Below are positions 46,328 through 63,121 of a DNA stretch of 64,000 nt, piece after piece. The translations under genes were made by a program, and so were the position numbers. The DNA lies in the NCBI GenBank assembly GCA_023251455.1, contig JAHEYT010000038.1:1-64000 (forward strand), given 5' to 3'. This stretch comes from Bacteroidota bacterium. GTDB lineage: Bacteria; Bacteroidota; Bacteroidia; Bacteroidales; Prolixibacteraceae. How positions within the stretch are numbered: position 1 is the stretch's first letter; the number at the start of each line of letters is the position of its first letter. The notes under the pieces are model-generated. The model ran no database searches. It saw nothing but the letters and a program-made list of their open reading frames with translations, and was not told the origin of the DNA.

Positions 46328-46584
46328 AGGATATTGTGTGCGAGTAGTTGGATTCTGCAATATTTAAATTATATGGTTCTGTGTTATTTTCAATCAGTGA
46401 AAAGACTCAAGTATTCTAACATTGTTAGTAATTACCCAAAACAGATTTACGCTACTTGCTATTTTAGTATTGTTGAAGGTAAAGATGTTGATTATTAATG
46501 GTCTGTGCCTGTTTTGAAATGTTATATTACCGACTTCTGTCAGGGTAATGTAATATGAATTGCTGCTATATAAACCAGAATGTG

Positions 46585-48201
46585 CTAGGGTTGAAAGGAG
46601 TTTGGTAGTGTAAAAAAGAACTTACTGCCCATGCCAAGTTCGCTTTCAACCCAAATTTTACCATTATGCTTTTCAATAAAATCTTTACACAAGATTAATC
46701 CCAATCCACTTCCCTTTTCGTTGGCAGTGCCCGGAGTTGAGCCTTGATGCTTCAAGTGGAAGAGCTTATTTTTAGTTTCTGCATTCATACCAATTCCATT
46801 GTCGGCTATCATGATTTCATTTTGATCGTTTAACGAATGAGCACTTATGGTAATAATTCCATGCGCATTTGAATATTTTATTGCATTACTTATTAAATTT
46901 TGAAAAATCGTGGTAAGCATTTTTGTGTCAGCGAAAATCTCAAATTCGTCTGGTATATCATAATTTAATTTTAGTTGTTTAAGATATATTGCAGAATCTA
47001 AATTTTTTGAAACATAATCAACAATTGGCAGCAGTTTTTGTTGTTGTGGTTGAAATGGCATTGTTCCAGCTTGTACTTTTGACCATTCCAATAAATCATC
47101 TAATAAATTAAGCGTTCTGTTGGCATCATCCTCGATGAGACTTAAATAGTTTTTTCGTTCATCATCATTAAATTCATCATACTGACTCAGCAATATCTCC
47201 AAAAACTCAATAATACTGCTGAATGGACTTCGTAAGTCATGGGCAATAATAGAAAAGAATTTGTTTTTTGTTTCAATCAATTCTTTCAGTCTGTTTTCTT
47301 TCTCTGATAAATTGTTGGTCAGCCTTTGGAATCTTACTCCGATTGCATTTAGAGCTTCTTCTGCTTTTTTTTGTGATGTAATGTCATTTACGATCATTTG
47401 AATTGCAGGAGAACCGTTATGTGTTGTTCTTATTAGTTTAACTTGAGCATCAAATTCATAGCCATTCATTCGAAGCATCTTTTCTTCGAACGTAGATTCA
47501 ATTTGGCCATGTATAACAGATTTCATTTTTTTATTGAAATTCATCCTTGATTTCAGAGGAATGAATTTGGAGATCCTCATTCCTTTAACTTGCAGTTGAG
47601 CATTTTCTTCAAGCATTCGAATTCCGGCACGATTAATAAATTCAAATCTGTCGTTCTGAATTATAGCGATTAATGAAGGAATGCTTTCAATCAAACTTTT
47701 AAATTTTTCTTCTTTTTGTCTGAAGTTTTCCTCTGCAAGTTTATATTTTGTGATGTCCAGAATAGTTCCATACGACCGAATTGGATTGCCTTCAGAATCA
47801 AAATCGGTACTGCAAATTTCATTGATCCATTTAATTCGCCCATCATTGAAAAGCAAACGATAATTGATTTCAATTGGCCTCTTATTCGTTTTTAAATCTT
47901 CGTGTATCTGATTTTTTATCTTGCGGTCATCTGGATGCACAACTTCAAGAAAATTATTAAAATTGGCTCCATATTTTCTTGGATTAATCTCGAGCAACTC
48001 GAAAATCCCATCTGACCATAACAGTTGATTGTATTCATGATCAAGAAACCAGCGAGCCATGTGGGCATTTATTTGTGCCCGTTTTAGAAAATTCAGATGA
48101 ATTTCTTCATCGCGCGGATCAGCGTAGATAATTTCGTATGGCTCATTCAATTTTTCATTGCCTATTTCCGAAATCGATAATTTTGATTCTATCTTTTTCA
48201 T
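46585..48201 (-). CDS. PAS-domain sensor histidine kinase
   Basis: A 538-residue soluble kinase. Two PAS/PAC units (about 40-165 and 170-290; the PAC signature is LLFNDGRIKWINEICSTDFD), HisKA with SIIAHDLRSPFSSIIEFLEI (about 320), and an ATPase domain with NLISNAIKYS, DNGIGMNAETK and GSGLGLILCKDF. No membrane helix and no receiver. It is on the same strand as the hybrid kinase and NtrC genes but separated by about 260 bases, so it may act with either. Confidence 0.9.
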   Translation of the reverse strand: MKKIESKLSISEIGNEKLNEPYEIIYADPRDEEIHLNFLKRAQINAHMARWFLDHEYNQLLWSDGIFELLEINPRKYGANFNNFLEVVHPDDRKIKNQIHEDLKTNKRPIEINYRLLFNDGRIKWINEICSTDFDSEGNPIRSYGTILDITKYKLAEENFRQKEEKFKSLIESIPSLIAIIQNDRFEFINRAGIRMLEENAQLQVKGMRISKFIPLKSRMNFNKKMKSVIHGQIESTFEEKMLRMNGYEFDAQVKLIRTTHNGSPAIQMIVNDITSQKKAEEALNAIGVRFQRLTNNLSEKENRLKELIETKNKFFSIIAHDLRSPFSSIIEFLEILLSQYDEFNDDERKNYLSLIEDDANRTLNLLDDLLEWSKVQAGTMPFQPQQQKLLPIVDYVSKNLDSAIYLKQLKLNYDIPDEFEIFADTKMLTTIFQNLISNAIKYSNAHGIITISAHSLNDQNEIMIADNGIGMNAETKNKLFHLKHQGSTPGTANEKGSGLGLILCKDFIEKHNGKIWVESELGMGSKFFFTLPNSFQP

Positions 48202-48318: not shown

Positions 48319-49917
48319 TTATTTAGGTTTTGAACCAACAATTATTTTTTTTGTAGCAAAACTTGTTTCGTCAATAACAGTAACGAAGAATATATTGCCT
48401 GAAAATTGAGCAATGGACCATTCCGTATGAACGTCAAATACTCTTTCTTTAACCAATATCTGTCCTTGTGTATTTATAATTATTACTGTGACTCCAGCTG
48501 AAGTCATTTGATCTATTTGAAGCTGGATTTTGTCCTGAGTTGGATTTGGAAATAATTTGAAATGGGTCAGATTAGTCAGATTCTTAACAGAAACTGGATT
48601 TACGATTGTATATTTTTTCTGAATGGTACTTTGCGATTCATCAGACGCTTTGGCAATTACATTAATTGTACCTTGCGAAATTGTTGTTAATAATCCGTTT
48701 TCATCAATAATTGCTTTCCCGGTCAGATTTTCAACTGACCATATTATGGATTGATTAGTTGCGTTTGAGGGATTAATAGCAACTTTCAAAACCAGTTTTG
48801 TGCCAATTCCCTTAATTGTATCATTTGTCAGATTATCAATAATTGAAATATTCTCAATTAATATTTTTTGATTAGTAATTGTTATTTGCAGTTCACCTTT
48901 TACGCCTGAACCATCGGTTGCAGTTGCTACTACTTTTATAGTTCCATTTTTTGTAGCTTTAAGTAATCCAGATGAATTGATTGTTGCCTCACCTGTTAAA
49001 TTGACAACACTCCAGGTAACTGATTTCGATAAGGCGTCAATTGGCAAAATGGAAGTTTGCATCTGGAGACTCCCCTGATCAATTGTAATTTCCTTATCTC
49101 CATTTAGTGAATTTACTAATATGTTTGTGATGTAATAATTTGTGTTAAGTACATTAACAACAGTCTGAGCAAAAAGCGGTCCAATAGTTTGATAAGCTAA
49201 TGTATTTGGATGTGAATCATCAGAAGTATGACTTCCTTCATATTCATATTTAAGACAGTATTGTTTCCCATTAACCGGTTTTTCGGTCATTTCGGCAGCT
49301 AACGAATAAAAATCAAAGATGAAAATATTAGCATGTAGTTTTCCATCTTCAGTTAGCCATTGATCTTTTACCCATTTAACGAATTCATATGCTCGAGCAG
49401 CTTCTTCCGTTGTGGTTGCTAATCGATGGAGAGGAACCAAGGTACAAACCATAAACTTTTTATCTGACATACCATCCATTAATGTTCGGAGAGCCCTGTA
49501 TTGCAATTTGTAATTTTCAAGCGATTTCCTGCTTGAAGAGATACTCGGTATGCCTGTGTCTGGGTTAACACTGGCTCCTGGATAACAATGTTTAAAAATG
49601 ACTAAACCATAATTGTTGGCAATGGAAGAAAGACATTCGATATTTGGATTACTGTTATTACAGCTATTATCTACCCAGAGTTTCCAGTAATCGTATGGAT
49701 AGTTTTCCCAAGGCCAAGGAGTATCAGGATATGTTCTGGCTGTAACTTGAAAATTTGTATTATTTGTGAAATTATACGTTTTCACCCAGTCCGCAACTTT
49801 CCCCTGAGAATAAATACCATTGCCTGTTGAGTGTACTAGGAAAATAGCTTTATTTTTCTGTGAGAATCCGAATACGGTAATCCCACAAAGCAATAATGTG
49901 ATGATTCTTGTTTTCAT
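48319..49917 (-). CDS. Secreted protein with SGNH-like domain, two BIG2-type domains and T9SS sorting signal
   Basis: A 532-residue protein with a signal peptide (1-19). Residues 25-270 show a hydrolase-like domain with HSTGNGIYSQGK near the start and DDSHPNTLAYQTIGPLF near its end, resembling the C-terminal Asp-x-x-His of SGNH enzymes; the Ser nucleophile is not clear. Two Ig-like BIG2 domains follow (about 280-350 and 360-440, each with SVVNLTGEATINSSGLL or SVENLTGKAIIDENGLL). The last 75 residues are a T9SS type A sorting domain (LFPNPTQDKIQLQI). Surface attachment or secretion is inferred. Confidence 0.75.
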   Translation of the reverse strand: MKTRIITLLLCGITVFGFSQKNKAIFLVHSTGNGIYSQGKVADWVKTYNFTNNTNFQVTARTYPDTPWPWENYPYDYWKLWVDNSCNNSNPNIECLSSIANNYGLVIFKHCYPGASVNPDTGIPSISSSRKSLENYKLQYRALRTLMDGMSDKKFMVCTLVPLHRLATTTEEAARAYEFVKWVKDQWLTEDGKLHANIFIFDFYSLAAEMTEKPVNGKQYCLKYEYEGSHTSDDSHPNTLAYQTIGPLFAQTVVNVLNTNYYITNILVNSLNGDKEITIDQGSLQMQTSILPIDALSKSVTWSVVNLTGEATINSSGLLKATKNGTIKVVATATDGSGVKGELQITITNQKILIENISIIDNLTNDTIKGIGTKLVLKVAINPSNATNQSIIWSVENLTGKAIIDENGLLTTISQGTINVIAKASDESQSTIQKKYTIVNPVSVKNLTNLTHFKLFPNPTQDKIQLQIDQMTSAGVTVIIINTQGQILVKERVFDVHTEWSIAQFSGNIFFVTVIDETSFATKKIIVGSKPK

Positions 49918-50182: not shown

Positions 50183-52168
50183 TTACAGAATAGTCAACTG
50201 ATCAATAATCCTATAATTTTTTAGATTTTCTTTATTGGCAATTATCGGTTCCTGTATAAACTTTTTATTTAGAATTTGTGTCGAAAGGATACCGGTAATT
50301 GCCATCTGATCAATTTCAGAAATTAACCCACCATTTTTAATTTTGGTAAGTAAGCTTTTTACTTTTTCAGGATTGAAAATCCCAGAATCATTTAACGACT
50401 TTTCTGAAAGAATATCTGATAAATAATCAGGAGCATTTTTTGAGAATAAGCTGCTTATTATTGGTGCACGATATGCTTGTTTTGATCTGCTGGTTATGGA
50501 ATCAGGAATCTTGCCTTCACTCAATTTCTTAAGAATGAATTTTTCATTTAGGCAGTTTAGCTTGTAATTATCAGGCATTTGATTACAAAATTCTATAACC
50601 CTGTAATCTAAAAATGGATATCTTCCTTCAACCGAATTTCCCATAGCCATTCTGTCGCCTTGAGAGGATAAAAGATACCCGGACATGAAAATATTTGCTT
50701 CAAGAAATTGTGATTTTGATAGACCACTCCAGTTCCCAAAATTATTCGGTAGATTATTGTTGATATCATTTAATGGATTGTTTCCATTCAATGAAGAGAA
50801 ATAATCATCTAAAAAAAAAGATTTTATTCTGCTCGTATTGTGCCACCGCAACAGATGAGAATAAAGTGGATCTTCTGTTTCATTCAGCTTATATCCAAAA
50901 AACATTTTTAATGCCATATCTGGTGAATCTTTCAGAAGTGGAATGTAAGGGTAAAGTTTTGTCAGTAATTTTGGTCGGGCAGTTGAATTTGGTTCATTTG
51001 CCCAAAATCTTCTGATTTTTGCTTCCTTAAAAATATTATACCCACCCAAAAATTCATCTGCGCCTTCACCAGTAATTACAACTTTGATGTTGCTTTCCTG
51101 TACCTTTTTTGACAACAAAAACATAGGGGTAGGAGAGGTCCTCAAAATTGGGAATTCAGTATGCCAGATAGTCTCTGCAAAATTCTCGGCAAGCTCTTCT
51201 GATGTACATGAAAACGCAGTGTGATTTGTTCCGAAAAATTTTGCCGCCTCTAGCTGATAAGCTGTCTCGTCGTATGTTTTATCGACAAATCCAATCGAAA
51301 AAGTATTTAATATATTGGCATTGACCTTTTTAATATACGCTGTTGTGACGCTTGAATCAAGTCCGCCACTTAAATATGCCCCAACCGGAACATCAGCTCT
51401 TAATCTAATCTTTACTGCATCATAAAGTAATTCATCAAGTTCTTCAATTGTATCAGATAAATTACTGCTTTTAATATCTTTTCTGGCAGGAAAATTCATG
51501 TTCCAATACTTTTGTATTTGAATTCCACCCGAATTTATTTTCATGAAATGACCAGGCTGTAATTCAACAATATTTTTGAATGGAGTTTTGGGCGTTAGGG
51601 TAGTCCAGAAAGTAAATATCTGCGAAATACTTTCTTTATCAAGAGAGCGTTCAATCTGATCAAGTGCAAAAAGCCCCTTTATTTCTGAGCAAAAGGCAAA
51701 TGACTCATTTTGATGCCAATAGAATAAGGGTCGGATTCCGACTCTGTCGCGGGCCAGAAACATTTCCTTTTTATTCCTATCCCAGATGCAAAAAGCAAAC
51801 TGACCATTAAATTGAGACAGGCAATCAGAACCATATTGGGCATACATTTGTAGCACAACCTCCGTGTCGCTGCTGGTTTTAAACCTGATTCCACTGTTCT
51901 CTAACTTTGACCTTAATTCAAGATAATTGAATATCTCACCGTTATAAACAATCCAATACCTTCCGGTATAATCGCTCATGGGTTGTTGCCCTGAGGAAAG
52001 GTCAATAATGCTTAAACGGACGTTTCCGATTCCCAGATTTTTATCCAGATAAACTCCACTTTCATCAGGTCCCCGATGGTTTATCATCGAAAGCATCTTC
52101 TTTACGTTTTGTTCGGTAGAAGGCTCTTTGGATGAATAATAATTATATATTCCAGCTATTCCGCACAT
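50183..52168 (-). CDS. Asparagine-synthetase-type amidotransferase (AsnB family)
   Basis: A 661-residue enzyme. The class II glutaminase domain starts with MCGIAGIYNYY (Cys2 nucleophile) and includes NHRGPDESGVYLD, VRLSIIDLSSGQQPM and WIVYNGEIFNY. The ATP domain carries the PP-loop YLSGGLDSSVTTAYI (about residue 265) and VITGEGADEFLGGYN. Length is usual. It is the last gene of an operon of carrier-protein enzymes, not the standard asparagine locus, so a different carboxylate is likely the amide acceptor. Gene symbol withheld for that reason. Confidence 0.88.
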   Translation of the reverse strand: MCGIAGIYNYYSSKEPSTEQNVKKMLSMINHRGPDESGVYLDKNLGIGNVRLSIIDLSSGQQPMSDYTGRYWIVYNGEIFNYLELRSKLENSGIRFKTSSDTEVVLQMYAQYGSDCLSQFNGQFAFCIWDRNKKEMFLARDRVGIRPLFYWHQNESFAFCSEIKGLFALDQIERSLDKESISQIFTFWTTLTPKTPFKNIVELQPGHFMKINSGGIQIQKYWNMNFPARKDIKSSNLSDTIEELDELLYDAVKIRLRADVPVGAYLSGGLDSSVTTAYIKKVNANILNTFSIGFVDKTYDETAYQLEAAKFFGTNHTAFSCTSEELAENFAETIWHTEFPILRTSPTPMFLLSKKVQESNIKVVITGEGADEFLGGYNIFKEAKIRRFWANEPNSTARPKLLTKLYPYIPLLKDSPDMALKMFFGYKLNETEDPLYSHLLRWHNTSRIKSFFLDDYFSSLNGNNPLNDINNNLPNNFGNWSGLSKSQFLEANIFMSGYLLSSQGDRMAMGNSVEGRYPFLDYRVIEFCNQMPDNYKLNCLNEKFILKKLSEGKIPDSITSRSKQAYRAPIISSLFSKNAPDYLSDILSEKSLNDSGIFNPEKVKSLLTKIKNGGLISEIDQMAITGILSTQILNKKFIQEPIIANKENLKNYRIIDQLTIL

Positions 52169-52191
52169 AGAAAATGAGTTTATATTATTAT

Positions 52192-53103
52192 TTAAAGGTC
52201 TTCACTTACCTTTCTAGCTTTTAATACTCGAATGTTGCCATGTTCATCGCAGATTTCAACTATTTCTCCATACTGTTTATTTAAACTAAGTCTTTTTGCA
52301 AGATATTCTCCTTGACCCAATCCACATTCAAAAATCAGGTATCCATTGTTACACAAATAATCTGGAGAAATGGAAATAAGTTTGTTAAAAATGGATAATC
52401 CAAATGGGCCGGCATCAAAAGCTTCAGAGGGTTCATGATCTGCAATTTCTTTTGTCATTTGTTTAACTTTTACTGTTGAAATATAAGGTGGAGCGCTAAC
52501 TATAACATCAACCTTATTCTTTATGCCTAAGGATTCAAATGGATTAAACATATCCGAATTATAAAAGGAAAGCTGATTTTCCAATTTAAAGTGTTTCGCA
52601 TTTATAATGGCAGCCTCAATTGCCGGTTTGTAAATATCCGATCCTAATACTATTGAATTTTTACAATAATTAGCAATGGCAATAGCAATCGTTCCAATTC
52701 CAGTGCACAAATCAATTACAGTAATCTTTGTTTCAGTCGAATATTCTTTTAATAATAATTCAATTGTAGTTCCAGCTAAAAGTTCAGTTTCTTTTCGAGG
52801 GATATAAAGACCTTTATTTAAAATATAATCCAAGCCCATGAAATTCTGTCTTTCAGTCAAATGTGCAAGAGGTACTCCAAGTAACCTACTAGCGATTAAC
52901 TCTTTGAGTGCACTGATTTGATTAGGTTTCAGATAAGGTAATTCAAGTTTATTTGCTTTAATAGGTGAAACCCGATTGCCCGAAGCTGTGTGCCATAAGG
53001 CACTTAGTGTATTATGCTCATTTTCCTCACTTTTATCAGCAAGAAAGCTTAATTTACCTTCTATTTTGTATAATAACTCCTGAAATATTGCTTTTTGCGG
53101 CAT
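52192..53103 (-). CDS. Second PrmC/HemK-like methyltransferase with altered NPPY motif
   Basis: A 303-residue protein that aligns along its length with the neighbouring HemK-like protein. Shared features are ASRLLGVPLAHLTERQNFMG, GLYIPRKETELLAG and the SAM motif DLCTGIGTIAIA. The catalytic NPPY of the PrmC family is replaced by APPY at 204-207 (VIVSAPPYIST). PrmC uses the Asn side chain to bind the substrate amide, so a changed substrate or loss of activity is expected. It lies 16 bases after the NTF2-like gene and 23 bases before the AsnB-type gene. Confidence 0.85.
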   Translation of the reverse strand: MPQKAIFQELLYKIEGKLSFLADKSEENEHNTLSALWHTASGNRVSPIKANKLELPYLKPNQISALKELIASRLLGVPLAHLTERQNFMGLDYILNKGLYIPRKETELLAGTTIELLLKEYSTETKITVIDLCTGIGTIAIAIANYCKNSIVLGSDIYKPAIEAAIINAKHFKLENQLSFYNSDMFNPFESLGIKNKVDVIVSAPPYISTVKVKQMTKEIADHEPSEAFDAGPFGLSIFNKLISISPDYLCNNGYLIFECGLGQGEYLAKRLSLNKQYGEIVEICDEHGNIRVLKARKVSEDL

Positions 53104-53119
53104 GTATTTTCCTTTCTTT

Positions 53120-53596
53120 TTATGTTAAAATTGATGATCCATCTATTTGGATAGTCGTTTTTGAATAGGAGTATTTCTGAATGATTTTTCCATTCTGAAA
53201 GTATAGAATATCAACACCGCGTCTTATCTCGTGTTTACCTTTATATTGTTCTAAGAAAGAAGGCCATTCAAGTCGCCACATAAATAGCATCTTTTGTTCG
53301 TTTTCATCAAAAAATAGATCTTCTTCAATAAATCTAAAATTTCCATGATTTAAGAACCAGGGAGTCCATGATTTTTTAAGTAAATCTTTTCCAACAATTC
53401 GTGTACAATTCCAGTTTTCGAAAACAATATTTTCGTGTAATAATTTCATAACTCCATTCAAATCATGTTCATTCCATGCAATGAGCCATTCATTAAATAA
53501 TATTATTATTTCTGCCTTTGAAAGATTTATTTCGCTCACTTTATTATTTGTTAAATCATAATATAAATCATTAAAGCTTTGATTGTGACGCTGCAA
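53120..53596 (-). CDS. NTF2-like (SnoaL-type) small protein
   Basis: A 158-residue protein whose core (about 30-140) shows the NTF2-like cone fold: AEIIILFNEWLIAWNEHDLNGVMKLLHE (first helix with the WNEHD motif), IVFENWNCTRIVGKD, and FMWRLEWPS with terminal ILYFQNGKIIQKYSY strands. Such proteins act as isomerases, cyclases or binding partners in small-molecule pathways. The only start upstream is TTG 53596, which overlaps the HemK-like gene by 26 bases; no ATG is near. Specific function unknown. Confidence 0.75.
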   Translation of the reverse strand: MQRHNQSFNDLYYDLTNNKVSEINLSKAEIIILFNEWLIAWNEHDLNGVMKLLHENIVFENWNCTRIVGKDLLKKSWTPWFLNHGNFRFIEEDLFFDENEQKMLFMWRLEWPSFLEQYKGKHEIRRGVDILYFQNGKIIQKYSYSKTTIQIDGSSILT

Positions 53597-54470
53597 TAAC
53601 TCTGATATTTTCAGTATTATCGGTATAAGATTTTATTTGGTTATAATAATTTGATTTTTCGCATAACTGAATAACAAAAGGACCTTGTCCGACCCCAACT
53701 TCAAAAATTAACCAACCACCTCTTGTCAGGAACTTTGGTGATTCCTGAATTAATTTCTGAATTATCTTCAATCCTACCATTCCACCATCGAAGGCCATGG
53801 CAGGCTCATTCGCTGCGATCTCGGAAGTCATCTGAGAAACTTTGGATGTTGAAATGTATGGAGGATTACAAACAATCAGGTCGATTTTACCCCAGTAATC
53901 AGCAGAATCGAATTTCAAGAATAAATCGCTTTGAGCAGCTTTTACCCTATGATTAAGCCCCAAAAATGAAATGTTTTCATTTGCAAGCTCTATGGCTTCG
54001 TGAGATAGATCAGATGAATGGATCATTGTATTTTCATGATGGCTTGCTATGGCCAATCCTAGATTTCCTGAACCACAACAAATATCTAGTATAGAGATAA
54101 CTGACTTCTCTTTGGCAATTTTCTCACAAAGATGCAGAGCTGCTTTGCCCAAAATTTCAGTTTCTTTTCTGGGAATAAGCGCTCTTTTATCGGTCAACAT
54201 TTCAATACCCATAAAGCTTTGACGACCAGTGATATGAGCTAGTGGCTCTCCGTTAAGTCGTTTTTCAACAAGTTGGTGCAATCTTGTTATTTGTTGATCA
54301 GAAAGTTCAACTAATGGAAGATTCGTAGCTTTTTCTGCTGACATGGCAATGCCAAGAGCTTTTTGCCAAAGGGCTTTGATCGTAGATTCGATCGTTTCCT
54401 CAGGCTTATCTTCAAGTAATCTAAGATTACTTTCTAATTTCAATTTTATGACGGCATATAAATCTTCCAA
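53571..54470 (-). CDS. PrmC/HemK-family methyltransferase (intact NPPY)
   Basis: A 299-residue protein. N-terminal helical domain 1-75 (MEDLYAVIKLKLESNLRLLEDK), then GEPLAHITGRQSFMG, ALIPRKETEILGKA, SAM motif DICCGSGNLGLAIA and the catalytic CNPPYIST at 201-208. PrmC methylates a glutamine side-chain amide of release factors, but this copy lies in a biosynthetic operon with a paralogue, so another amide substrate is likely. The start is TTG 54470 behind an AAGGG sequence; no ATG fits. It begins 2 bases after the AMP-ligase ends. Confidence 0.85.
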   Translation of the reverse strand: MEDLYAVIKLKLESNLRLLEDKPEETIESTIKALWQKALGIAMSAEKATNLPLVELSDQQITRLHQLVEKRLNGEPLAHITGRQSFMGIEMLTDKRALIPRKETEILGKAALHLCEKIAKEKSVISILDICCGSGNLGLAIASHHENTMIHSSDLSHEAIELANENISFLGLNHRVKAAQSDLFLKFDSADYWGKIDLIVCNPPYISTSKVSQMTSEIAANEPAMAFDGGMVGLKIIQKLIQESPKFLTRGGWLIFEVGVGQGPFVIQLCEKSNYYNQIKSYTDNTENIRVIAASQSKL

Positions 54471-54472
54471 TT

Positions 54473-56035
54473 TTACCCTTTTAAGCTATTTTTTAATTCT
54501 GCTTTGTCAATTTTCCCATTGCTGCTTTTAGGCATTTCAGGAAGTAAGATAATTTTTTGAGGAACCATAAAAGGCTCCAAATTAGCCATGCATTCTTTCA
54601 TGATTTCCCTTTCAAGAAGAGTTACCTTATCGTAAACCGTTATGAAAGCAACGATTGATTCGCCCAATATGACATCCGGAATTCCTATGACAGCTACCTC
54701 TTTAATCCCATCAATTTTATAAATGATGTTTTCAACTTCTACTGGACTTACTTTTTCGCCTCTGGTTTTAATGATGTCGTCATTTCTACCCATAAAATAT
54801 AGAAATCCCTCGTCATCCATTTTAAATAAATCATGTGCACATAAAATTCGTTCACCAGGTATTGAACCGGTTTTCAGCATTTTATTACTTAACTCTTCGT
54901 TGTTCCAATAGCCAGCCATAACATGAGGGCCTCTTACATGCAATATTCCAATCTCTCCCGGGCCAACCCTATTTCCTTCGGGCGATAACAGAAAAACTTC
55001 GGTGCCAGGGATAGCCTTACCTACTGAATTTGGCTTCACATCGTTTAATTCAGGTTCCAAATAGCAAACGCGCTTACATTCGGTTAAACCGTACATTTTA
55101 AATATAATCGCATTGGGAAATATTTTTTTCAGGTCGGCTACAAATTCTTCAGGAAGCGCTGCGGCCGTGTTGGTAATCGTTTGTATACAATCGAAGGTTA
55201 TCCCTGTTTTTTTATGGGTTGCAATCATCATTGCATAAATTGAAGGAACTCCTGGAAAAACTGTCGGTTTTAGTTGTTCAATCTTCCTGAATATCGTTGG
55301 TGGAAAATTAAATGAATGTTCAATTATTAGCGTTCCTCCGATGGTAATGGCCATTATTAACTGGTAAAGTCCATAATCAAACGCCAATGGTAAAATCAGC
55401 ATTATTCGCTCGTTCTCAGTTAACCTCAAATACTCGATAAGGCTCCATGATGTAAAAACCATGGATTGGTGGGTCATCATAACTCCTTTGGGAAACCCAG
55501 TGCTGCCCGATGTGTATATCAGTGCAGCCAAATCATTTGGAATTATCCTTGGCAGAATTGCGCTTTCAACCTTGGCAGTGATTTCTTCAAAGTTAATAAG
55601 ACTGATATCTAAATCAATTGGCAGGCTTGCTTCAGAAATAATAAGCTCTTTTATTTCATTCAATCCTTCAATTGCACGCAGCAATTCGGGCTGGAGATTA
55701 CCACTGGAGATTACCACCTTAGCTCCGCTATCGTTTAAAATGTAGTTTAGTTTATTTGCTTTCGTTTGTGGATTTACAACCAGAAAAACGCCGCCTGCAA
55801 GTGTAATTCCGTATATCGAAACGATACATTGCCAGGAGTTATTCATGTATATGGCTACCCGGTCCCCTTTTTCAATTCCAGCATTTATCAAATGATAGGC
55901 CAAATTTTCTGAACACTCTTTTAATTCGGTGTAGGAATACTCCTTTTCATTAAAAATGGCCGCTGTTTTTAATGGATGTCTTAGATAGGAGAATTCCAAG
56001 GCTTCTCCTAATAAACGTTGTGGTCTTGAATACAT
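54473..56035 (-). CDS. AMP-forming acyl/aminoacyl ligase
   Basis: A 520-residue enzyme of the ANL superfamily. A3 motif YTSGSTGFPKGVMMTH (about 170), A5 MYGLTECKRV, A7 DLFKMDDEGFLYFMGRNDDI, A8 KTRGEKVSPVEVE, and the A10 catalytic Lys in SSNGKIDKAELK. The order is complete, so adenylation and thioester transfer should be possible. ATG 56035 (MYSRPQRLLGEALEFSY) is preferred over TTG 56062. A discrete ACP gene is just upstream, so loading of a carrier protein is more likely than CoA. The activated acid is not predictable. Confidence 0.9.
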   Translation of the reverse strand: MYSRPQRLLGEALEFSYLRHPLKTAAIFNEKEYSYTELKECSENLAYHLINAGIEKGDRVAIYMNNSWQCIVSIYGITLAGGVFLVVNPQTKANKLNYILNDSGAKVVISSGNLQPELLRAIEGLNEIKELIISEASLPIDLDISLINFEEITAKVESAILPRIIPNDLAALIYTSGSTGFPKGVMMTHQSMVFTSWSLIEYLRLTENERIMLILPLAFDYGLYQLIMAITIGGTLIIEHSFNFPPTIFRKIEQLKPTVFPGVPSIYAMMIATHKKTGITFDCIQTITNTAAALPEEFVADLKKIFPNAIIFKMYGLTECKRVCYLEPELNDVKPNSVGKAIPGTEVFLLSPEGNRVGPGEIGILHVRGPHVMAGYWNNEELSNKMLKTGSIPGERILCAHDLFKMDDEGFLYFMGRNDDIIKTRGEKVSPVEVENIIYKIDGIKEVAVIGIPDVILGESIVAFITVYDKVTLLEREIMKECMANLEPFMVPQKIILLPEMPKSSNGKIDKAELKNSLKG

Positions 56036-56198
56036 AAGTATTGTATTTAGATTAAGACTCAAATGTTTGTGATGTAAATTGATTGTGTCAAGTCAATATC
56101 ATCCCAATTTATTTTGGAGATTGTATCCTAATTTCGGGATGTCGAAACACGTTCATTATGCCTAAGGTTAATATAGCTGGATAACACAGAATCGAAAG

Positions 56199-56465
56199 CT
56201 ATTCGTTTCCACTGGTATTTAACTTCCGGAAAACAAAATCAGAAATGGCATTAATCGACTCAAAGTTAGTTTCGAGAAGCTCATTGTCGGCTGTCGTGAT
56301 TGAGAAATTCTCTTCGATAAAGCCAATAATTGAAATAAAACCCATTGAATCCATTATTCCCTGAGCAAAAATGTATGTATCATTATTGACTTGATCGGCT
56401 GAAACGTATGAAGTTTTAAGAATGAACTGTTTAATTTGTTCCTGAATTTGAATTATATCTTTCAT
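56199..56465 (-). CDS. Discrete acyl carrier protein
   Basis: An 88-residue protein with the four-helix ACP pattern. The phosphopantetheine serine is Ser40 in GIMDSMGFISII. Acidic surface helix 2 (IGFIEENFSI) is typical of interaction with ANL ligases or other partners. It lies 64 bases downstream of the NadE-like gene and 163 bases upstream of the ligase ATG. It would carry the activated intermediate for amidation or methylation steps by neighbouring enzymes. Confidence 0.92.
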   Translation of the reverse strand: MKDIIQIQEQIKQFILKTSYVSADQVNNDTYIFAQGIMDSMGFISIIGFIEENFSITTADNELLETNFESINAISDFVFRKLNTSGNE

Positions 56466-56529
56466 TACTTATTTGTTTTAAAATGTTTCTAAAATATTTA
56501 ACAATTAGGTGAATTGAAAAGTTTGTATA

Positions 56530-57525
56530 TTATTTGATTTCATAGGTAATTGGAGCCATTCTTAAATATTCTGTTGTCTTTTTCTTCCTAATTAAATTGT
56601 TAAACACAAACTTAACATCTTCCGTTGTTTTGTTTAGAACTAATCCGGCGTCTTCTGCTGAGATTCCATTATCCATGGCATAAACAATTAAATCCATTTC
56701 TAAAAATGGCATTTGAAAGAAAAACTCTTCCTGAGTCTGCACGGCGGAATAGGTATCTGACGTTGGTGTACGTTTAATAATTTCTTCCGGAACTCCTAAA
56801 TATTCAGACAACTGGTAAACCTGTGATTTGTAGAGATGTGCTATTGGCATTACATCAGCTCCGCCATCGCCATTCTTTACAAAAAAACCTTGTTCCACTT
56901 CATGTTTGTTTGGGGTACCAATCATGGCAAAATGCAAACGTTCAGCATGGTAATACAACATTGACATCCGGCAACGCTGTTTGAAATTTGATGCTGCAAC
57001 AATTTGTAAATATTCTTTTATGGGGAGAATCTTGTGTTTTTCATTTCCGTCGTCATTAATTATCGTAAGTGAAAAAACAGGTGGCAGAAATTGATTCAGG
57101 CCGCTATGATTGATTCCAATTTTCATTTTATATTGGTCAGGGTTATACTCCGGGAAAATTGCTTTTACCGCTTCGTCCCTCCGCTGGTAGCAGCCGAATC
57201 CTTCCAGCGCTCCGGTGATGTCCTCTTCCAAGGTCATTACCTTAAATTTATCGGCTAGTTTTAATGCAAATTCTTTGCTTTCCGGACTCGAATCTTTTTC
57301 TGGCAGCATAATACCGAGCACATTTTCCGCTCCAAGAGCTTTAACTGTTAGTGCTAGGGTTACCGAAGAATCGATTCCTCCGCTAATACCAATAACGGCT
57401 CCTTTACGTTTCATTGCACCCAGAATGTCATCCTTTAATTTCCAAGAAATCCGTTGGACTTCTGCTTCCACATTTTTCATTTTCAAAATATCTTTTGAAA
57501 ATGGGGTTGTAAGTTTTGAATTCAT
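56530..57525 (-). CDS. NadE-like ATP-dependent amide ligase
   Basis: A 331-residue protein of the NAD synthetase / PP-loop family. The PP-loop is GISGGIDSSVTLALTV near residue 45. NFKQRCRMSMLYYHAE, GTPNKHEVEQGFFVKNGDGG and ADVMPIAHLYKSQVYQL match the NadE active site. An insertion (about 110-145) and the absence of a glutaminase domain make it an NH3-dependent type. ATG 57525 is chosen; ATG 57573 adds 16 residues, and ATG 57480 would shorten it. Placed first in an operon with ACP, ligase and AsnB-type genes, so a second substrate than NaAD is likely, but plain NAD synthesis is not excluded. Confidence 0.82.
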   Translation of the reverse strand: MNSKLTTPFSKDILKMKNVEAEVQRISWKLKDDILGAMKRKGAVIGISGGIDSSVTLALTVKALGAENVLGIMLPEKDSSPESKEFALKLADKFKVMTLEEDITGALEGFGCYQRRDEAVKAIFPEYNPDQYKMKIGINHSGLNQFLPPVFSLTIINDDGNEKHKILPIKEYLQIVAASNFKQRCRMSMLYYHAERLHFAMIGTPNKHEVEQGFFVKNGDGGADVMPIAHLYKSQVYQLSEYLGVPEEIIKRTPTSDTYSAVQTQEEFFFQMPFLEMDLIVYAMDNGISAEDAGLVLNKTTEDVKFVFNNLIRKKKTTEYLRMAPITYEIK

Positions 57526-57888
57526 ACTATTTAAACAATTAAGTTGAGTTGAAGATTTGAATTTTTCGCACATATGTGTGAAATAGCTGAGTCAAAAGTT
57601 CCTATGCCAAATGCTGCATAAAGAAATATTTTTTTATTGATTTTATTTTACTGATTTATGTGCTTGATTTACATGGTTATACATTGTTGTTTGATTCCAT
57701 TTTTCAATTAATTTTAAACTTTGGAATACGATTTGAAAATGTTGATCCGTTAACAACAATGTTGTTCTTTGCTTACTGAATGTATTCACTGTAATTTATT
57801 GATTAGTAATCAATAAGCTGTGAGTAAATAGGTGGAGATGAAAGTGCGAGGGAGAAGGTTTATTCAGTGATTTTAAAAAACAAGAGCG
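57526..57888. promoter_or_regulatory. Divergent promoter region with two palindromes
   Basis: This 363-base interval separates the divergently read NadE-like operon and the large beta-helix protein. Two inverted repeats are visible: AACAACA-A-TGTTGTT at 57752-57766 and TTATTGATT-AGT-AATCAATAA at 57796-57816. CACATATGTG at 57570-57579 is a third small one. They could bind dimeric regulators of either side. No consensus -7/-33 pair could be located. Confidence 0.5.
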
Positions 57889-60800
57889 ATGAAAAGTATT
57901 TACGAGAGATTTACAAAAAGAACATTACTGGCCATTTTAATTGTCCATTTTTCTATGTTGAGTTTTGCTGCGACCTACTATGTCAGTAGTACAGGCAATG
58001 ATTCCAATTCCGGGCTTGCAACAACTTTGGCCTGGAAAACTATGGCAAAAGTTAATTCAGCAACATTTAAGGCCGGGGATCAAATATTGTTTAATCGGGG
58101 AGAAATATTTTATGGTTCACTTACTATTTCGCAGTCAGGGGTGTCAGGTTCTCCAATTACTTTAGGAGCTTATGGTACAGGAGAGAATCCAATTATTACA
58201 GGATTTACAAGCGTTAGTGCATGGACAAATTTAGGTTCAAATATATGGGAAAGCACTTCTACAGTTTCATCTCTATCAACCTGTAATCTGGTTACTGTTA
58301 ATGATGTAAATACTGCGATGGGGCGTTATCCCAATGCTGATGCAACTTGGGGTGGTTACTTACCATTTCAATCACATTCGGGGTTAACCTCGATTACAAG
58401 TAGCAGCCTATCAGGTACTCCCAATTGGACAGGAGCAGAAATTAGGATAAGAACTTCTTCATGGTCTTTTGGTAAATCAATTATAACTTCTCAAAGTGGA
58501 AGTACTTTAAACTTTAATACACTCGATTCTTATACTCCTGTGGATCGTTGGGGATTCTTTATTCAGAATGATGTTAAAACTCTTGATGCTCAAAACGAAT
58601 GGTACTATAATCCTTCGACTAAGAAAATTCGAATTTATAGTACAAGTCAGCCTGCGAATGTAAAAGTTGCTTCAGTTGATAATTTATTGATAATTAACGG
58701 AGACTACATTACTATCGACGGAATAAATTTATTGGGAGCTAATGGAAACGTTATTTATACGGCTTCGACAACAGTTGACCATGTGAATATCCAGAACTGC
58801 TCTGTTTTATACGCAGGTAACGCAACATTGCAATTGAGATGTGCCTATTTTGATGTACAAAACAACACGATCGCATACGCAAATAATAAAGGTGTATCTC
58901 TTGATCGTTGCAGTAATGTTACATTTAAAAATAATAATATTCATGATATTTCCATTTTAGCCGGGATGGGCAATACCGGAAATAGTGCTTTCTCTGGATT
59001 GAATGGATATTTTCAGTCTAATGTTTTGATTGAAGCAAATACATTCACCAATTTTGGGGGAGCTGCTATAGAGGTTTATGGCGATAACGTAACGGTAAAA
59101 AACAATGTTGTAGATACATTTGGCTTTGTAATTGAGGATTTAGGAGGTATTTATTCCTATGTTGGAACTGGTACCCCATTTACAAAGGTTAAAATAGAAG
59201 GAAACGTTGTTTTAAACGGAATTGGTGCAATTAATGGAACATACTATGCTGCCGGACAAGAACAGGCAAATGGGATTTATCTGGATGATAACTCTAATAA
59301 CGTTGAAGTTTTAAATAATACAGTGGCAAATTGTTCCGCTTATGGATTATTTCTTCATAATATGCATGCAGTAAATGTTCAGAACAATACTGTGTATAAT
59401 AATAGACGAGGACAAATACAGATCAAAGATGATTCTAATGGCGGAGTGATTGAAAACAATATTTTGAGTGGTAATATATTCGTTTCCAGGTCTGCAGCTC
59501 AAAAAGTTCTTTACTGCAGAAGCTCTGATAATAATATTTCGACTTTTGGTGGTTTCTCAGACAATTACTATGCAAGGCCGATTGACGACAATTTAACTAT
59601 TACAGTAGATCAGCCTTCATTGGCGATGACAAATCAGACGCTCTCGGGATGGCAGACATTTTCTGGTCAGGATGCGAATTCAAAAAAATCACCACAAACC
59701 ATTGTCTCGGAATCTGATTTGCAGTTTGAATACAATGCTACTGCGGCTCCAAAAACAGTTACATTGAGTCGATCAATGATAGACGTAAAAGGTGTTAAAT
59801 ACAGTTCAAACATAACATTGCAGCCTTTCACTTCTGTTGTATTGATGAAAGACTTGAGTGCTACTTCTGCAGTTGCCCCTGGCGCTCCAACATCACCTGT
59901 TGCAACTGCCGGAAATGCGAGTGCATCAGTTACTTTTGTGGCTCCAACAAACAATGGAGGTTCAGCTATTACTGGATATACGGTTACTTCAATTCCTGCT
60001 GGAGGGGTGGATAGTAATGCCGGATCAACATCACTCACTCACAACATTACAGGATTAACCAATGGTACTTCTTATACATTTACCGTTAAAGCAACAAATT
60101 CAGCAGGAAGCTCAGTGGCTTCTGTTGCTTCAAATTCGGTAATCCCCAAAGCGCCTGCAGCTACTGGATTCTTATTCACCGGCCCATCTTCGGGAAGTAT
60201 AAATAGTGCTTCCTCAAACTTTACCGTTACTCCTAATAATCTATATACAGGAACTATTACGGTTACTCCTTCAGGCACCGGGAGTGCCGGACTTTCGGCC
60301 AAGGTATTTACATTCTCCAATTCTTCTGCGGCTCAAACTTTTACGATCACTCCAACTGTTGCCGGAAGTATTACTTTAATAGCAACAAATAATGGTATAT
60401 TAAGCAATCCTGCCAATTTAACTTACACCGTAAATGCAGTGGTGCCTAATGCTCCAACATCAGTTGTTGCTACTTCCGGAGATGCAAGTGTATCAGTTTC
60501 GTTTATGGCTCCGACCAATACTGGAGGTTCGGCTATCACTGGTTATACCATCACTTCAAATCCTGCGGGAGGAACCGATATCAATGCAGGATCAACTGCA
60601 CTAACTCACACCATCACTGGATTAACCAACGGTACATCTTATACATTTACAGTCAATGCAATCAACTCAGTTGGAAGCTCTATTGCTTCAGTTGCTTCAA
60701 ATCCGGTGATACCAGTAGCTGCCAGTGTGATTATTAAACAAGGTGAAATTATCCCTTCACATTTTATTACGGTATGGGAAGGATTAAACGGCTTAAACCA

Positions 60801-62343
60801 CATGAATATTAATATCGTATCTGCTGTTTTGGAGGATATTCCACTTTCGGTTGACGATGAAATAGCTGTATTTAGTGGCTCAGCCTGTGTTGGTACATCA
60901 AAATTGACCAAAGCAATTGTTCCTGGCGATAATTCTACATTCCTCACTATTCTGGCATCACAAAACGATGGTTCAGGCAATGGTTTTACCGATAATGATA
61001 CAATTGTCTTTAAAATTTGGAATAGTAAAACACAAAATGAATTGCAAGTCAACTCGGTGGTCTATCGCAATGATGTTTCTACCTGGAAAACAAACGGAAG
61101 ATATTCGCCAGGAGCAACTACGGTAGTTGAAATTGCATCTTATCAGGTCTATACTCAAAGTATTGAATTACTGAAAGGGTACAACATGATTTCTACCTAT
61201 GTCTCAGCTCAAAACCCCAATGTAAGCATTGTTACTAAAACACTTCTTGATCAGGGCAACTTGATCAAAATGCAGGATGAAACCGGTAATTCGTTCGAAA
61301 ATTGGGGCACTTTTGGCGGTTGGATCAATCAGCTTGGATCATTGGAAGAAACCGAAGGTTATAAAATTCAGGTTGCTAACAATTGTACCCTACAGGTAAC
61401 CGGAAGGCCAATCGCTATGCCTTTTGATATCTCGCTTAAAACAGGATGGAATATTATTTCATTTCCACGTACTGATGTGGTTAATGCCATTAATGTCGTT
61501 CAATCCTTGATTGATCAGAATAAACTGGTTAAAGTTCAGGATGAAGCTGGAAATTCAATCGAAAACTGGGGCTTATTTGGGGGATGGAAAAATGGAATTG
61601 GTAATTTTATTCCAGGCAAAGCCTACAAAATAAAAATGAGCGTTGATGCAATACTTACTTTTCAGGAAAGTTATCCAAAGTCTGCTTTAGTTGCTGCCAA
61701 GTCAGAACAAAGTGAATATTATAAATCAATGGTTGAAGGAAATGGTACAGATCATATGAATATTAATATCACTGGTCTAAATAATATCGATATTTCTGTT
61801 GGCGATGAACTCGCAGCGTTTGATGGTGCTATTTGCGTCGCAACGACCAAAATCACAGAGGCAAATCTACTGAGTGGTTCTGCCAGTTTAGCTTCTTCTA
61901 TTTCAACTGATGATCAGAGTCCAAATGGTTTCAAAGTGGGAAATCCAATTCGAATCACGACGTGGAGCAAACTTAGCGGTAATGAATCAATAGTCAATAC
62001 TGCAATTATCACCGGACAAATGAAATATGAAAAGAACGCCACTGTGCTTGTTGAGATGAAGTCGGCAACAATTGCAACAGGCATAGCCAATTTGGAAAAT
62101 GTAGTCAAAATTGATGTATTCCCAAATCCATGTCAAGGCAAAGTAACTGTTCGCTTTTCTGAAATCCCTGACGAAGATAGCCGGATTGAGATTTCGGATA
62201 TATCAGGAAGAAAGCTTATTTCGCGAGTTATTTCCGGAACGTCTGAAGAGTTTAATTTAGAGTCATTGACCCCAGGTTTATATGTAGTAAAATCAATTTT
62301 GGGTTCAAACGAATTTGTACAAAAGTTGATTGTTAATAAATAG
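57889..62343 (+). CDS. Giant secreted beta-helix protein with T9SS sorting domain
   Basis: A 1484-residue protein. Signal peptide 1-28; a right-handed parallel beta-helix (about 29-620) with many N-N-x-V and Ile/Val rungs, and YYVSSTGNDSNSGL at its start as in pectate-lyase-like and alginate-lyase-like proteins; FN3 at about 664-754; an Ig-like region at 758-851; a second near-identical FN3 at 855-943; then a nested duplication A1 (953-1086), B1 (1088-1174), B2 (1178-1259), A2 (1275-1398); and a T9SS type A sorting domain 1408-1484 (VFPNPCQGKVTVRF). Type IX export to the cell surface is expected. Polysaccharide binding or cleavage is possible; no catalytic set is evident. Confidence 0.88.
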   Translation: MKSIYERFTKRTLLAILIVHFSMLSFAATYYVSSTGNDSNSGLATTLAWKTMAKVNSATFKAGDQILFNRGEIFYGSLTISQSGVSGSPITLGAYGTGENPIITGFTSVSAWTNLGSNIWESTSTVSSLSTCNLVTVNDVNTAMGRYPNADATWGGYLPFQSHSGLTSITSSSLSGTPNWTGAEIRIRTSSWSFGKSIITSQSGSTLNFNTLDSYTPVDRWGFFIQNDVKTLDAQNEWYYNPSTKKIRIYSTSQPANVKVASVDNLLIINGDYITIDGINLLGANGNVIYTASTTVDHVNIQNCSVLYAGNATLQLRCAYFDVQNNTIAYANNKGVSLDRCSNVTFKNNNIHDISILAGMGNTGNSAFSGLNGYFQSNVLIEANTFTNFGGAAIEVYGDNVTVKNNVVDTFGFVIEDLGGIYSYVGTGTPFTKVKIEGNVVLNGIGAINGTYYAAGQEQANGIYLDDNSNNVEVLNNTVANCSAYGLFLHNMHAVNVQNNTVYNNRRGQIQIKDDSNGGVIENNILSGNIFVSRSAAQKVLYCRSSDNNISTFGGFSDNYYARPIDDNLTITVDQPSLAMTNQTLSGWQTFSGQDANSKKSPQTIVSESDLQFEYNATAAPKTVTLSRSMIDVKGVKYSSNITLQPFTSVVLMKDLSATSAVAPGAPTSPVATAGNASASVTFVAPTNNGGSAITGYTVTSIPAGGVDSNAGSTSLTHNITGLTNGTSYTFTVKATNSAGSSVASVASNSVIPKAPAATGFLFTGPSSGSINSASSNFTVTPNNLYTGTITVTPSGTGSAGLSAKVFTFSNSSAAQTFTITPTVAGSITLIATNNGILSNPANLTYTVNAVVPNAPTSVVATSGDASVSVSFMAPTNTGGSAITGYTITSNPAGGTDINAGSTALTHTITGLTNGTSYTFTVNAINSVGSSIASVASNPVIPVAASVIIKQGEIIPSHFITVWEGLNGLNHMNINIVSAVLEDIPLSVDDEIAVFSGSACVGTSKLTKAIVPGDNSTFLTILASQNDGSGNGFTDNDTIVFKIWNSKTQNELQVNSVVYRNDVSTWKTNGRYSPGATTVVEIASYQVYTQSIELLKGYNMISTYVSAQNPNVSIVTKTLLDQGNLIKMQDETGNSFENWGTFGGWINQLGSLEETEGYKIQVANNCTLQVTGRPIAMPFDISLKTGWNIISFPRTDVVNAINVVQSLIDQNKLVKVQDEAGNSIENWGLFGGWKNGIGNFIPGKAYKIKMSVDAILTFQESYPKSALVAAKSEQSEYYKSMVEGNGTDHMNINITGLNNIDISVGDELAAFDGAICVATTKITEANLLSGSASLASSISTDDQSPNGFKVGNPIRITTWSKLSGNESIVNTAIITGQMKYEKNATVLVEMKSATIATGIANLENVVKIDVFPNPCQGKVTVRFSEIPDEDSRIEISDISGRKLISRVISGTSEEFNLESLTPGLYVVKSILGSNEFVQKLIVNK

Positions 62344-62455: not shown

Positions 62456-63121
62456 TTATTGATAATTAGCAGGATTTCTCCTCATGATAACTTTGCACGG
62501 ATTACCAACTGCAATAGAATTTTCAGGAATATTATTAAAAACAACACTGTTTGCACCAATGACTGAATTTTTGCCGATCGTCACACCTTTTAAAATTACA
62601 CATTGAAGCCCAATAAATACGTTATCTTCAATGATGATTGGTCTTGATGGTATAATACCCATTTCTCTTTTTGTAGGATCCGCATGGTGTGCATCATTAT
62701 CCAAGATAGTGCAATTAGATCCAATAAGGACATTATTCCCTATAATGATTTTTGATCTCGCATGTATCTTTAAACCTGAAGCTCCGGAATTATTTCCAAA
62801 TAGAATTTCAGCATTTTCTCCTACCGTTACAAATGAACAAGGTTGGTGAAGTCCTATTGTCAAAGAATTTTTTGAAGAATTGAATCTACAATTGTCTCCA
62901 AAACTAATAGTTGAGTTTGGATACCTACGAATAAGTGGATTTCCGTTGAATACTATATTTTTACCAAGCTTTATTCCTTTGATTGAACAGCTATAATTAA
63001 TAAAGCGATTAAAAAATAGAATAGTGATGTTCCTCTTAATTAAATATAGTGCATGGAAGAAAATTCCGCTATAATCTAATTTTTTGTATTGCTTTATTTC
63101 TTTTTTTATTCTATTGATCAT
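62456..63121 (-). CDS. Hexapeptide-repeat (LbH) sugar acyltransferase
   Basis: A 221-residue protein. From about 50 to 205 it shows left-handed beta-helix repeats of the type I-G-x-N-V/C (IVFNGNP, ISFGDNCRFN, ILFGNNSGASG, IIIGNNVLIGSNC, IIIEDNVFIGLQC, VTIGKNSVIGANSVV). The catalytic His is in ILDNDAHHADPTKREMG, and the GNPCKVIMRRNP tail is typical of CysE/LacA/WcaB-type acetyltransferases of surface polysaccharides. A basic, membrane-near N-terminus (1-40) includes FFHALYLIKRNITILFF. Acetylation of a sugar in the neighbouring polysaccharide locus is likely. Confidence 0.88.
   Translation of the reverse strand: MINRIKKEIKQYKKLDYSGIFFHALYLIKRNITILFFNRFINYSCSIKGIKLGKNIVFNGNPLIRRYPNSTISFGDNCRFNSSKNSLTIGLHQPCSFVTVGENAEILFGNNSGASGLKIHARSKIIIGNNVLIGSNCTILDNDAHHADPTKREMGIIPSRPIIIEDNVFIGLQCVILKGVTIGKNSVIGANSVVFNNIPENSIAVGNPCKVIMRRNPANYQ

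What the first reader, a model, noticed from the sequence alone, without database searches (positions are those of the whole stretch)
50183..57525. Carrier-protein operon with two amide ligases and two PrmC-like methyltransferases
Seen: seven close minus-strand genes, read as NadE-like, ACP, AMP-ligase, PrmC-like, NTF2-like, PrmC-like, AsnB-like, with gaps of 2-23 bases and one overlap in the last five. Known: AMP-ligases load ACPs, AsnB and NadE make amides, PrmC methylates an amide nitrogen of glutamine. Inferred: an acid bound to ACP is amidated and then N-methylated, maybe as a polysaccharide decoration or small molecule, since glycosyl- and acyltransferases flank it. I do not know a described pathway with this exact set.
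Basis: partly seen in the sequence, partly recalled or inferred. Interest (0 to 1): 0.8.

Follow-up and report, generated by a model that had tools for sequence, protein, structure and literature searches.

The report
Carrier-protein amide operon, methylated variant
A Bacteroidota genome carries an operon that appears to load a small acid onto a carrier protein, turn it into an amide and methylate it, probably to decorate a secreted sugar polymer; the same core genes occur in the alfalfa symbiont Sinorhizobium meliloti, where their product is not known.

Summary
In detail: seven consecutive minus-strand genes (NadE-like, ACP, AMP-ligase, PrmC-like, SnoaL/NTF2-like, PrmC-like, AsnB-like). The genome has a separate NadE, AsnB-type gene and PrmC, so these are not the housekeeping copies. 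The set lies at one end of an exopolysaccharide cluster. Four genes (NadE-like, AsnB-like, ACP, ligase) form a rare, patchy core, found here in Bacteroidota, one Anaerolineae MAG and alphaproteobacterial plasmids including S. meliloti pSymB. The pSymB pair is almost certainly SMb20650/SMb20651; a paper reports that this ligase acylates this ACP in E. coli. The PrmC-like methyltransferases are an add-on: in 31 of 31 ligase rows found without the methyltransferase as bait, they are present when the ligase reads FDYGLYQ (13) and absent otherwise (18). Their presence needs 2 changes on the ligase tree, 6 on the NadE tree and 5 on the AsnB tree. So the methyltransferase most likely acts on the acyl group chosen by the ligase, while the amide enzymes serve both kinds. 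A new variant of a known, functionally orphan operon.

The parts
56530..57573 (-). NadE-like (NF002048/PRK00876 subfamily) single-domain ammonia-type amide synthetase; inner ATG at 57525 possible
   Evidence: 432.9 bits, cut-off 313; P-loop and GDGGAD motif kept, C-terminal motif PTSDTYSAVQTQEEFFF shared by the subfamily with small changes; genome has another NadE
56199..56465 (-). acyl carrier protein, attachment Ser in DSM
   Evidence: Asp-Ser kept in 29 of 29 aligned ACPs, one of them a duplicate contig
54473..56062 (-). AMP-forming ligase, presumed to load the ACP; FDYGLYQ...YGLTECKR type
53571..54470 (-). PrmC/HemK-like methyltransferase Mt1, NPPY motif, PrmC_N-like N-terminal domain
53120..53596 (-). 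SnoaL/NTF2-like protein; start uncertain (GTG at 53539 possible)
   Evidence: in 4 of 119 relatives at E 1e-8, the same 4 that have the APPY Mt2
52192..53103 (-). PrmC/HemK-like methyltransferase Mt2, APPY in place of NPPY
50183..52168 (-). AsnB-like glutamine-dependent amide synthetase
   Evidence: begins MCGIAG; a separate AsnB-type gene exists
48319..49917 (-). secreted SGNH-type esterase or acyltransferase with Big_2 domains and T9SS tail; associated gene
   Evidence: model m3d3f4cbdb3a4 matches SGNH acylhydrolases, carbohydrate esterases and PatB at modest TM-scores; homologues in other core loci, next to AsnB in L047-L050
62456..63121 (-). hexapeptide acyltransferase of the exopolysaccharide cluster, candidate for the transfer step
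   Evidence: homologue 56% identical in L023
63327..63989 (-). WecG/TagA/CpsF glycosyltransferase of the exopolysaccharide cluster that runs on beyond the window
   Evidence: further genes

Best explanation
An acyl-decoration pathway of an exopolysaccharide cluster. (1) The AMP-ligase adenylates a small acid, probably a common alpha-amino acid such as aspartate or glutamate, and loads it on the ACP. (2) AsnB (ammonia from glutamine) and the NadE-like enzyme (free ammonia) turn carboxylates of the carrier-bound group into amides. (3) The PrmC-like enzymes methylate that group, most likely on the amide nitrogen as PrmC does on glutamine. (4) An acyltransferase (hexapeptide type here; MBOAT with SGNH, or GNAT type, elsewhere) moves it to a sugar. 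(5) The T9SS-exported SGNH enzyme edits it outside. Shown by computation: the operon, its not being housekeeping, the four-gene core, the match of methyltransferase presence to ligase type, the polysaccharide cluster around it in this genome. Reported in print for what is almost certainly the S. meliloti counterpart: the ligase acylates its ACP in E. coli. Inferred: the identity of the acid, the order of steps 2 and 3, the methylated atom, the transfer enzyme, the acceptor, the role of the SGNH enzyme.
For: Not housekeeping. Core recurs in Bacteroidota, an Anaerolineae MAG and alphaproteobacterial plasmids. MT present exactly with FDYGLYQ ligases: 13 with, 18 without, 0 exceptions among 31 rows found by NadE. 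MT needs 2 changes on the ligase tree, 6 on NadE and 5 on AsnB. G402/L052, same genus, has the other ligase type and no operon-type MT; L044 holds both ligases. MT found in 11 of 119 relatives, each with core genes. The ligase's nearest solved structure is linear gramicidin synthase, an amino-acid-activating enzyme, whose FD aligns with its FD. Mt1's NPPY aligns with that of E. coli PrmC/HemK. Ligase/ACP acylation in E. coli: PMC7232532, passage of its introduction. Polysaccharide genes in the own cluster; Wzc or Wza also in 11 of 32 relatives' loci, one a duplicate.
Against: No product is known. Two amide synthetases are more than one amide needs. The cluster also has a UDP-sugar dehydrogenase, so the amides could be on uronic acids. 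Mt2 has lost the Asn of NPPY. By the queries used, 21 of 32 relatives' loci show neither Wzc nor Wza within the stretch fetched. No MBOAT lies in this locus; the genome's only match is on another contig. The rhizobial GNAT has no relative in this genome. The amino-acid reading of FD rests on recalled A-domain knowledge, and L068 also has FD (FDYGLNQ) without an MT. Only 4 phylogenetically independent contrasts exist (4 of 4 agree, p 0.125).
Confidence: 0.45

Rival explanations
1. The amide synthetases act on the polymer, not on the acyl group: AsnB and NadE amidate uronic acids made by the cluster's UDP-sugar dehydrogenase, while ligase, ACP and methyltransferase make a separate acyl group.
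For: UDP-sugar dehydrogenase in the own cluster and in L044. AsnB-type enzymes amidating uronic acids are recalled from O-antigen work. NadE and AsnB do not follow the ligase type or the MT.
Against: NadE and AsnB sit beside ACP and ligase even where no sugar gene is annotated near (L096; that gene table is incomplete). Ligase and nadE reading frames overlap by 4 bases in S. meliloti and M. ciceri.
Confidence: 0.25
2. The methyltransferase methylates the alpha-amine (or a carboxylate) of a carrier-bound amino acid, not an amide nitrogen.
For: The MT-linked ligases read FD, the position that anchors an alpha-amine in A domains (with recalled knowledge). Mt2 has APPY.
Against: NPPY, kept in Mt1 and in the rhizobial enzymes, is the motif of enzymes that methylate planar nitrogens (recalled).
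Confidence: 0.2
3. A free secreted small molecule (a modified amino acid amide) rather than a polymer decoration.
For: The S. meliloti core lies near minCDE with no glycosyltransferase among the 24 annotated features. Neither Wzc nor Wza in 21 of 32 relatives' loci.
Against: Polysaccharide genes around the own operon, in 11 of 32 relatives' loci, and annotated beside the core in M. ciceri, Shinella and Azospirillum. The S. meliloti MT/GNAT pair is next to a lipopolysaccharide biosynthesis gene.
Confidence: 0.12
4. The PrmC-like enzymes are spare release-factor methyltransferases that merely moved into the operon.
For: Mt1 scores over the curated PrmC cut-off (214.5 against 199.1).
Against: Own PrmC elsewhere; match to ligase type; several rhizobial forms are 230-246 aa, and PF17827 (PrmC_N) is not among the families shown for the two scanned (25 of 26 and 25 of 27 shown).
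Confidence: 0.05

Closest known systems
S. meliloti pSymB asnB-ACP-ligase-nadE operon (ACP SMb20651, ligase SMb20650)
   Same: Same four core genes, same ligase type, PrmC-like MT on the same replicon about 11.6 kb away. The ligase acylates the ACP in E. coli (PMC7232532, passage seen).
   Different: There the MT is apart from the core and paired with a GNAT-like gene; no SnoaL and no second MT were found in the stretch. The link between locus tags and coordinates is inferred, because the 1021 record copy carries no annotation.
XrtA/PEP-CTERM (exosortase A) exopolysaccharide locus
   Same: TIGR03098 is the best NCBIfam match of the ligase, TIGR03108 the second of AsnB.
   Different: Both score far below the cut-offs (432.7 against 592.35; 414.6 against 816.9). 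I know of no NadE-like or PrmC-like gene in that locus (recalled).
Dlt-type D-alanylation (ligase, carrier, MBOAT, SGNH)
   Same: Ligase plus carrier; L026 has MBOAT and SGNH genes between MT and ACP.
   Different: No MBOAT in this locus; amide and methyl steps have no Dlt counterpart.
PrmC/HemK release-factor glutamine methyltransferase
   Same: Family, NPPY and, in Mt1, an N-terminal domain.
   Different: A separate PrmC exists in the genome; these follow a ligase type.

Membership tests
S. meliloti SMb20650/SMb20651-type core operon | NadE-like, AsnB-like, ACP and AMP-ligase together | tested here: met
S. meliloti SMb20650/SMb20651-type core operon | ligase acylates its ACP | not testable with these tools
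   reported for S. meliloti only (PMC7232532)
S. meliloti SMb20650/SMb20651-type core operon | ligase active-site type FDYGLYQ...YGLTECKR | tested here: met
Housekeeping NAD+ synthase | sole NadE of the genome | tested here: not met
   C76 copy scores 250.3 bits
Housekeeping NAD+ synthase | canonical C-terminal motif after the GDGxAD loop | tested here: inconclusive
   PTSDTYSAVQTQEEFFF differs from the four solved NadE sequences shown, but its role was not tested
PrmC release-factor methyltransferase | TIGR03534 cut-off 199.1 | tested here: inconclusive
   Mt1 214.5 over, Mt2 183.9 under
PrmC release-factor methyltransferase | NPPY motif | tested here: inconclusive
   Mt1 yes, Mt2 APPY
PrmC release-factor methyltransferase | only copy in the genome | tested here: not met
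XrtA/PEP-CTERM locus | TIGR03098 ligase and TIGR03108 amidotransferase over cut-off | tested here: not met
Dlt-type acylation system | MBOAT acyltransferase in the locus | tested here: not met
   only match is on contig C47

The most novel reading that the evidence does not exclude
The release-factor glutamine methyltransferase family has been re-used to N-methylate an amide on a carrier-protein-bound acyl group, giving an N-methylated amino-acid amide on a bacterial exopolysaccharide; in this genus a second form has lost the motif Asn (APPY) and works together with a SnoaL-like partner.
Probability: 0.3. Interest if true: 0.75.

Novelty: new variant of a known kind. Interest (0 to 1): 0.58.

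Why it matters
It turns an orphan operon of a model symbiont into a testable pathway. In the rows examined, across phyla, the ligase's active-site residues predict whether a PrmC-like enzyme is present, which points at the substrate of both. If the methylation is on a carrier-bound amide, it would be a new use of the PrmC family and a new type of polysaccharide substituent, and the names NAD+ synthase and release-factor methyltransferase that the family models give these genes would be wrong.

Tried and rejected
Housekeeping reading: rejected. Dlt-type system as such: rejected for this locus. XrtA membership: rejected on scores. Rhizobial GNAT as the transfer enzyme here: no relative in this genome at E 1e-5. 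SnoaL in a 21-genome phylum sample gave nothing beyond the own copy. Whether the operon methyltransferases are one clade against PrmC/PrmB is undecided: not rejected (p-AU 0.376), not shown (the quick tree is spoilt by long branches). Paper searches for the gene set: searches found no paper; two, which look unrelated by title and abstract; eight, forty (15 listed), sixteen (15 listed), of which I saw the listings only and none names this operon; (SMb tags) gave seven and two. Not followed: the Methanosarcina acetivorans copy of NF002048 (seen only as a named control).

Rows dropped or treated specially. L049 counts as MT+ because its genome G414 has an NPPY Mt2 on another contig. L053's MT is cut by the contig end. 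Of 116 plasmid records with the NadE-like protein I opened 11 found by it, chosen by hand to spread genera (10 in the count, L092 a second S. meliloti), plus L094 found by MT. Absence of an operon-type MT was checked genome-wide for the 13 Bacteroidota MT- rows: 2 have no match at E 1e-15, 11 have one match of 58.7-125.8 bits at 25-34% identity, which I take for the housekeeping PrmC. I looked closer only at the strongest (G795): it scores 141 bits to Mt1, 135 to S. meliloti PrmC and 129 to the own PrmC, so PrmC is likely but not proved. For the 5 plasmid MT- rows (L096, L098, L099, L100, L103) absence was checked only within the roughly 21-kb stretch and in the shown 60 of 168 records. Nine loci (L021-L029), L090 and L094 were found by MT query and are not in the 31-row count.
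Full report
What is there. The NadE-like protein belongs to the NF002048 subfamily (432.9 bits, cut-off 313). Mt1 exceeds the curated PrmC cut-off, Mt2 does not. The ACP is a weak but clear PP-binding match with a DSM attachment site.

Setting. The operon is at the end of an exopolysaccharide cluster that continues past the window: glycosyltransferases, a Wzx-like gene, FemAB-like and deacetylase genes, hexapeptide genes, then a UDP-sugar dehydrogenase, CotH, Wzc, Wza, an initiating sugar transferase and a NusG-like gene. Downstream of AsnB is a secreted protein with a T9SS tail. Its first 285 residues model as an SGNH enzyme at moderate confidence (pLDDT 71.4). The nine matches at E 0.001 or better are acylhydrolases, a carbohydrate esterase, PatB and four chains of designed scaffolds, with TM-scores of 0.33-0.58 by target length. 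Ser30 and His236 are invariant in the seven aligned; the Asp two places before the His is Asn in two of them.

A rare core. NF002048 occurs in 2 of 395 genomes of a class sample, 12 of 119 relatives and 13 of 395 of a phylum sample (which repeats the two). Around it I clustered 35 sequence sets (32 relatives' loci, two stretches of the own contig, and the window piece): ligase in 32, NadE in 31, ACP in 30, AsnB in 29, PrmC-like in 16, Wzc in 12, Wza in 11. These include nine loci found by methyltransferase query and one duplicate pair. Wzc or Wza is seen in 11 of the 32 relatives' loci, so the polysaccharide setting is plain in this genome but not shown for most relatives. In plasmid records the NadE-like protein has matches in 116 of 72,556, 76 of them Sinorhizobium. 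Of the twelve plasmid regions L092-L103, NadE, AsnB and ligase are present in each of the eleven that one search examined (L092 repeats L093 in another strain), and an ACP is annotated or found in all.

The methyltransferase follows the ligase. Classing ligases by the stretch FDYGLYQ, all 23 such rows have a PrmC-like gene and all 18 others have none. Keeping only rows found by NadE it is 13 and 18 of 31, with no exception (Fisher p 4.8e-9, not corrected for kinship). Corrected contrasts are few: 4 of 4 agree on both the NadE and the AsnB tree (p 0.125; with four it cannot be lower). MT presence needs 2 changes on the ligase tree (41 labelled rows), against 6 on the NadE tree (42 rows) and 5 on the AsnB tree (40 rows); these are quick trees. 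The clearest case is within the genus: L052 has NadE and AsnB 72% and 77% identical to the window's but a YCYGLSL ligase and no operon-type MT. In the rhizobial branch the Shinella/Nitratireductor ligases, sister to the Sinorhizobium ones, read FGYG and have no MT in the stretch. From the other side, MT was found in 11 of 119 relatives. In 10 it shares a locus with core genes, two of these on short contigs (G397, which I equate with L021 by its coordinates, and G421/L090); in G414 it is on another contig. The 3 of 12 NF002048 relatives without it (G402, G472, G504) have YCYGLSL ligases. Limits: absence was checked genome-wide for 13 of the 18 MT- rows only, and there a housekeeping PrmC was assumed from weak scores.

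What this implies. The MT acts, most simply, on what the ligase loads. The amide synthetases do not discriminate between ligase types, so they work either on a feature common to both acids (a second carboxylate) or on something else, such as uronic acids. The ligase's best solved relative is linear gramicidin synthase, with the query's FD aligned to its FD. That this Asp anchors an alpha-amine is recalled knowledge, and L068 shows that FD alone does not bring an MT. Several rhizobial MTs are only 230-246 aa (275 aa as annotated in an S. meliloti strain), and the two scanned show no PrmC_N domain among the families listed, which speaks against a release factor as target. The odds given to the explanations overlap, since the second rival is compatible with the rest of the best explanation.

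Link to known work. The pSymB region of S. meliloti 1021 (L093) holds AsnB, ACP, ligase and NadE. PMC7232532 (passages seen) says that SMb20650 is encoded on pSymB, is cotranscribed with the ACP SMb20651, gives acylated SMb20651 when expressed with it in E. coli, and does not replace FadD. PMC5686131 (passage seen) says that the function of SMb20651 needs further investigation. That these tags are the genes in L093 is inferred: it is the only NadE-like place in that replicon, and the record is unannotated here. The original paper (10.1099/mic.0.022079-0) is not held; I recall its abstract as naming asnB, smb20651, smb20650 and nadE1. Since acylation took place in E. coli with ligase, ACP and a phosphopantetheinyl transferase, the loaded acid should be an ordinary metabolite, and amidation and methylation should come later or be separate. 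I found no paper on the methylated set in the held library (listings, and passages of six papers).

Mt2 and SnoaL. In the 4 of 119 relatives that have the SnoaL gene, Mt2 reads APPY; G414 has an Mt2 relative with NPPY and no SnoaL match. In G405/L048 and G411/L050 the Mt2/SnoaL pair stands without Mt1, so it can serve alone. Why the Asn is lost together with a SnoaL partner is unexplained.

Transfer step. Candidates differ by lineage: MBOAT with SGNH inside the L026 operon, a GNAT-like family in rhizobia, Shinella, Nitratireductor and two Bacteroidota, and hexapeptide transferases elsewhere. In the window the hexapeptide gene at 62456-63121 is the nearest candidate. This is inference.

Verdict. 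Observation confirmed; interpretation partly supported; the core is already known as an orphan operon; the methylated variant and its tie to the ligase are not described in what I could search.

Noticed in passing
window 52192-53596; L047, L048, L050, L089: Loss of the NPPY Asn (to APPY) in Mt2 goes with a SnoaL-like neighbour in 4 of 4 genomes; the NPPY Mt2 of G414 has none.
   Followed up: partly
window 42901-48201; L046:2632-4620: Genes that read by eye as sensor kinases and an NtrC-type regulator lie downstream of the operon and the SGNH gene; a REC-PAS-kinase also sits beside AsnB in relative L046.
   Followed up: no
window 57889-62343: A 1484-aa protein that by eye looks secreted, with repeated fibronectin-like stretches, lies between the operon and the rest of the polysaccharide cluster; L027 and L028 have a pectate-lyase-like beta-helix protein near the core.
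   Followed up: partly
L019:4325-5776 (contig C7 67325-68776): A 483-aa protein with a weak glutamine-amidotransferase (GATase_7) match, a possible further AsnB-like amide enzyme in the same cluster.
   Followed up: no
L092, L094, L095, L096, L098, L099, L101, L102: A 369-373 aa GNAT-like family (384 with the start chosen in L102), hardly seen by Pfam, accompanies the core in these plasmids and also occurs in L067 and L068.
   Followed up: partly
control genome: Methanosarcina acetivorans also has an NF002048 protein over the cut-off, so the family reaches archaea.
   Followed up: no
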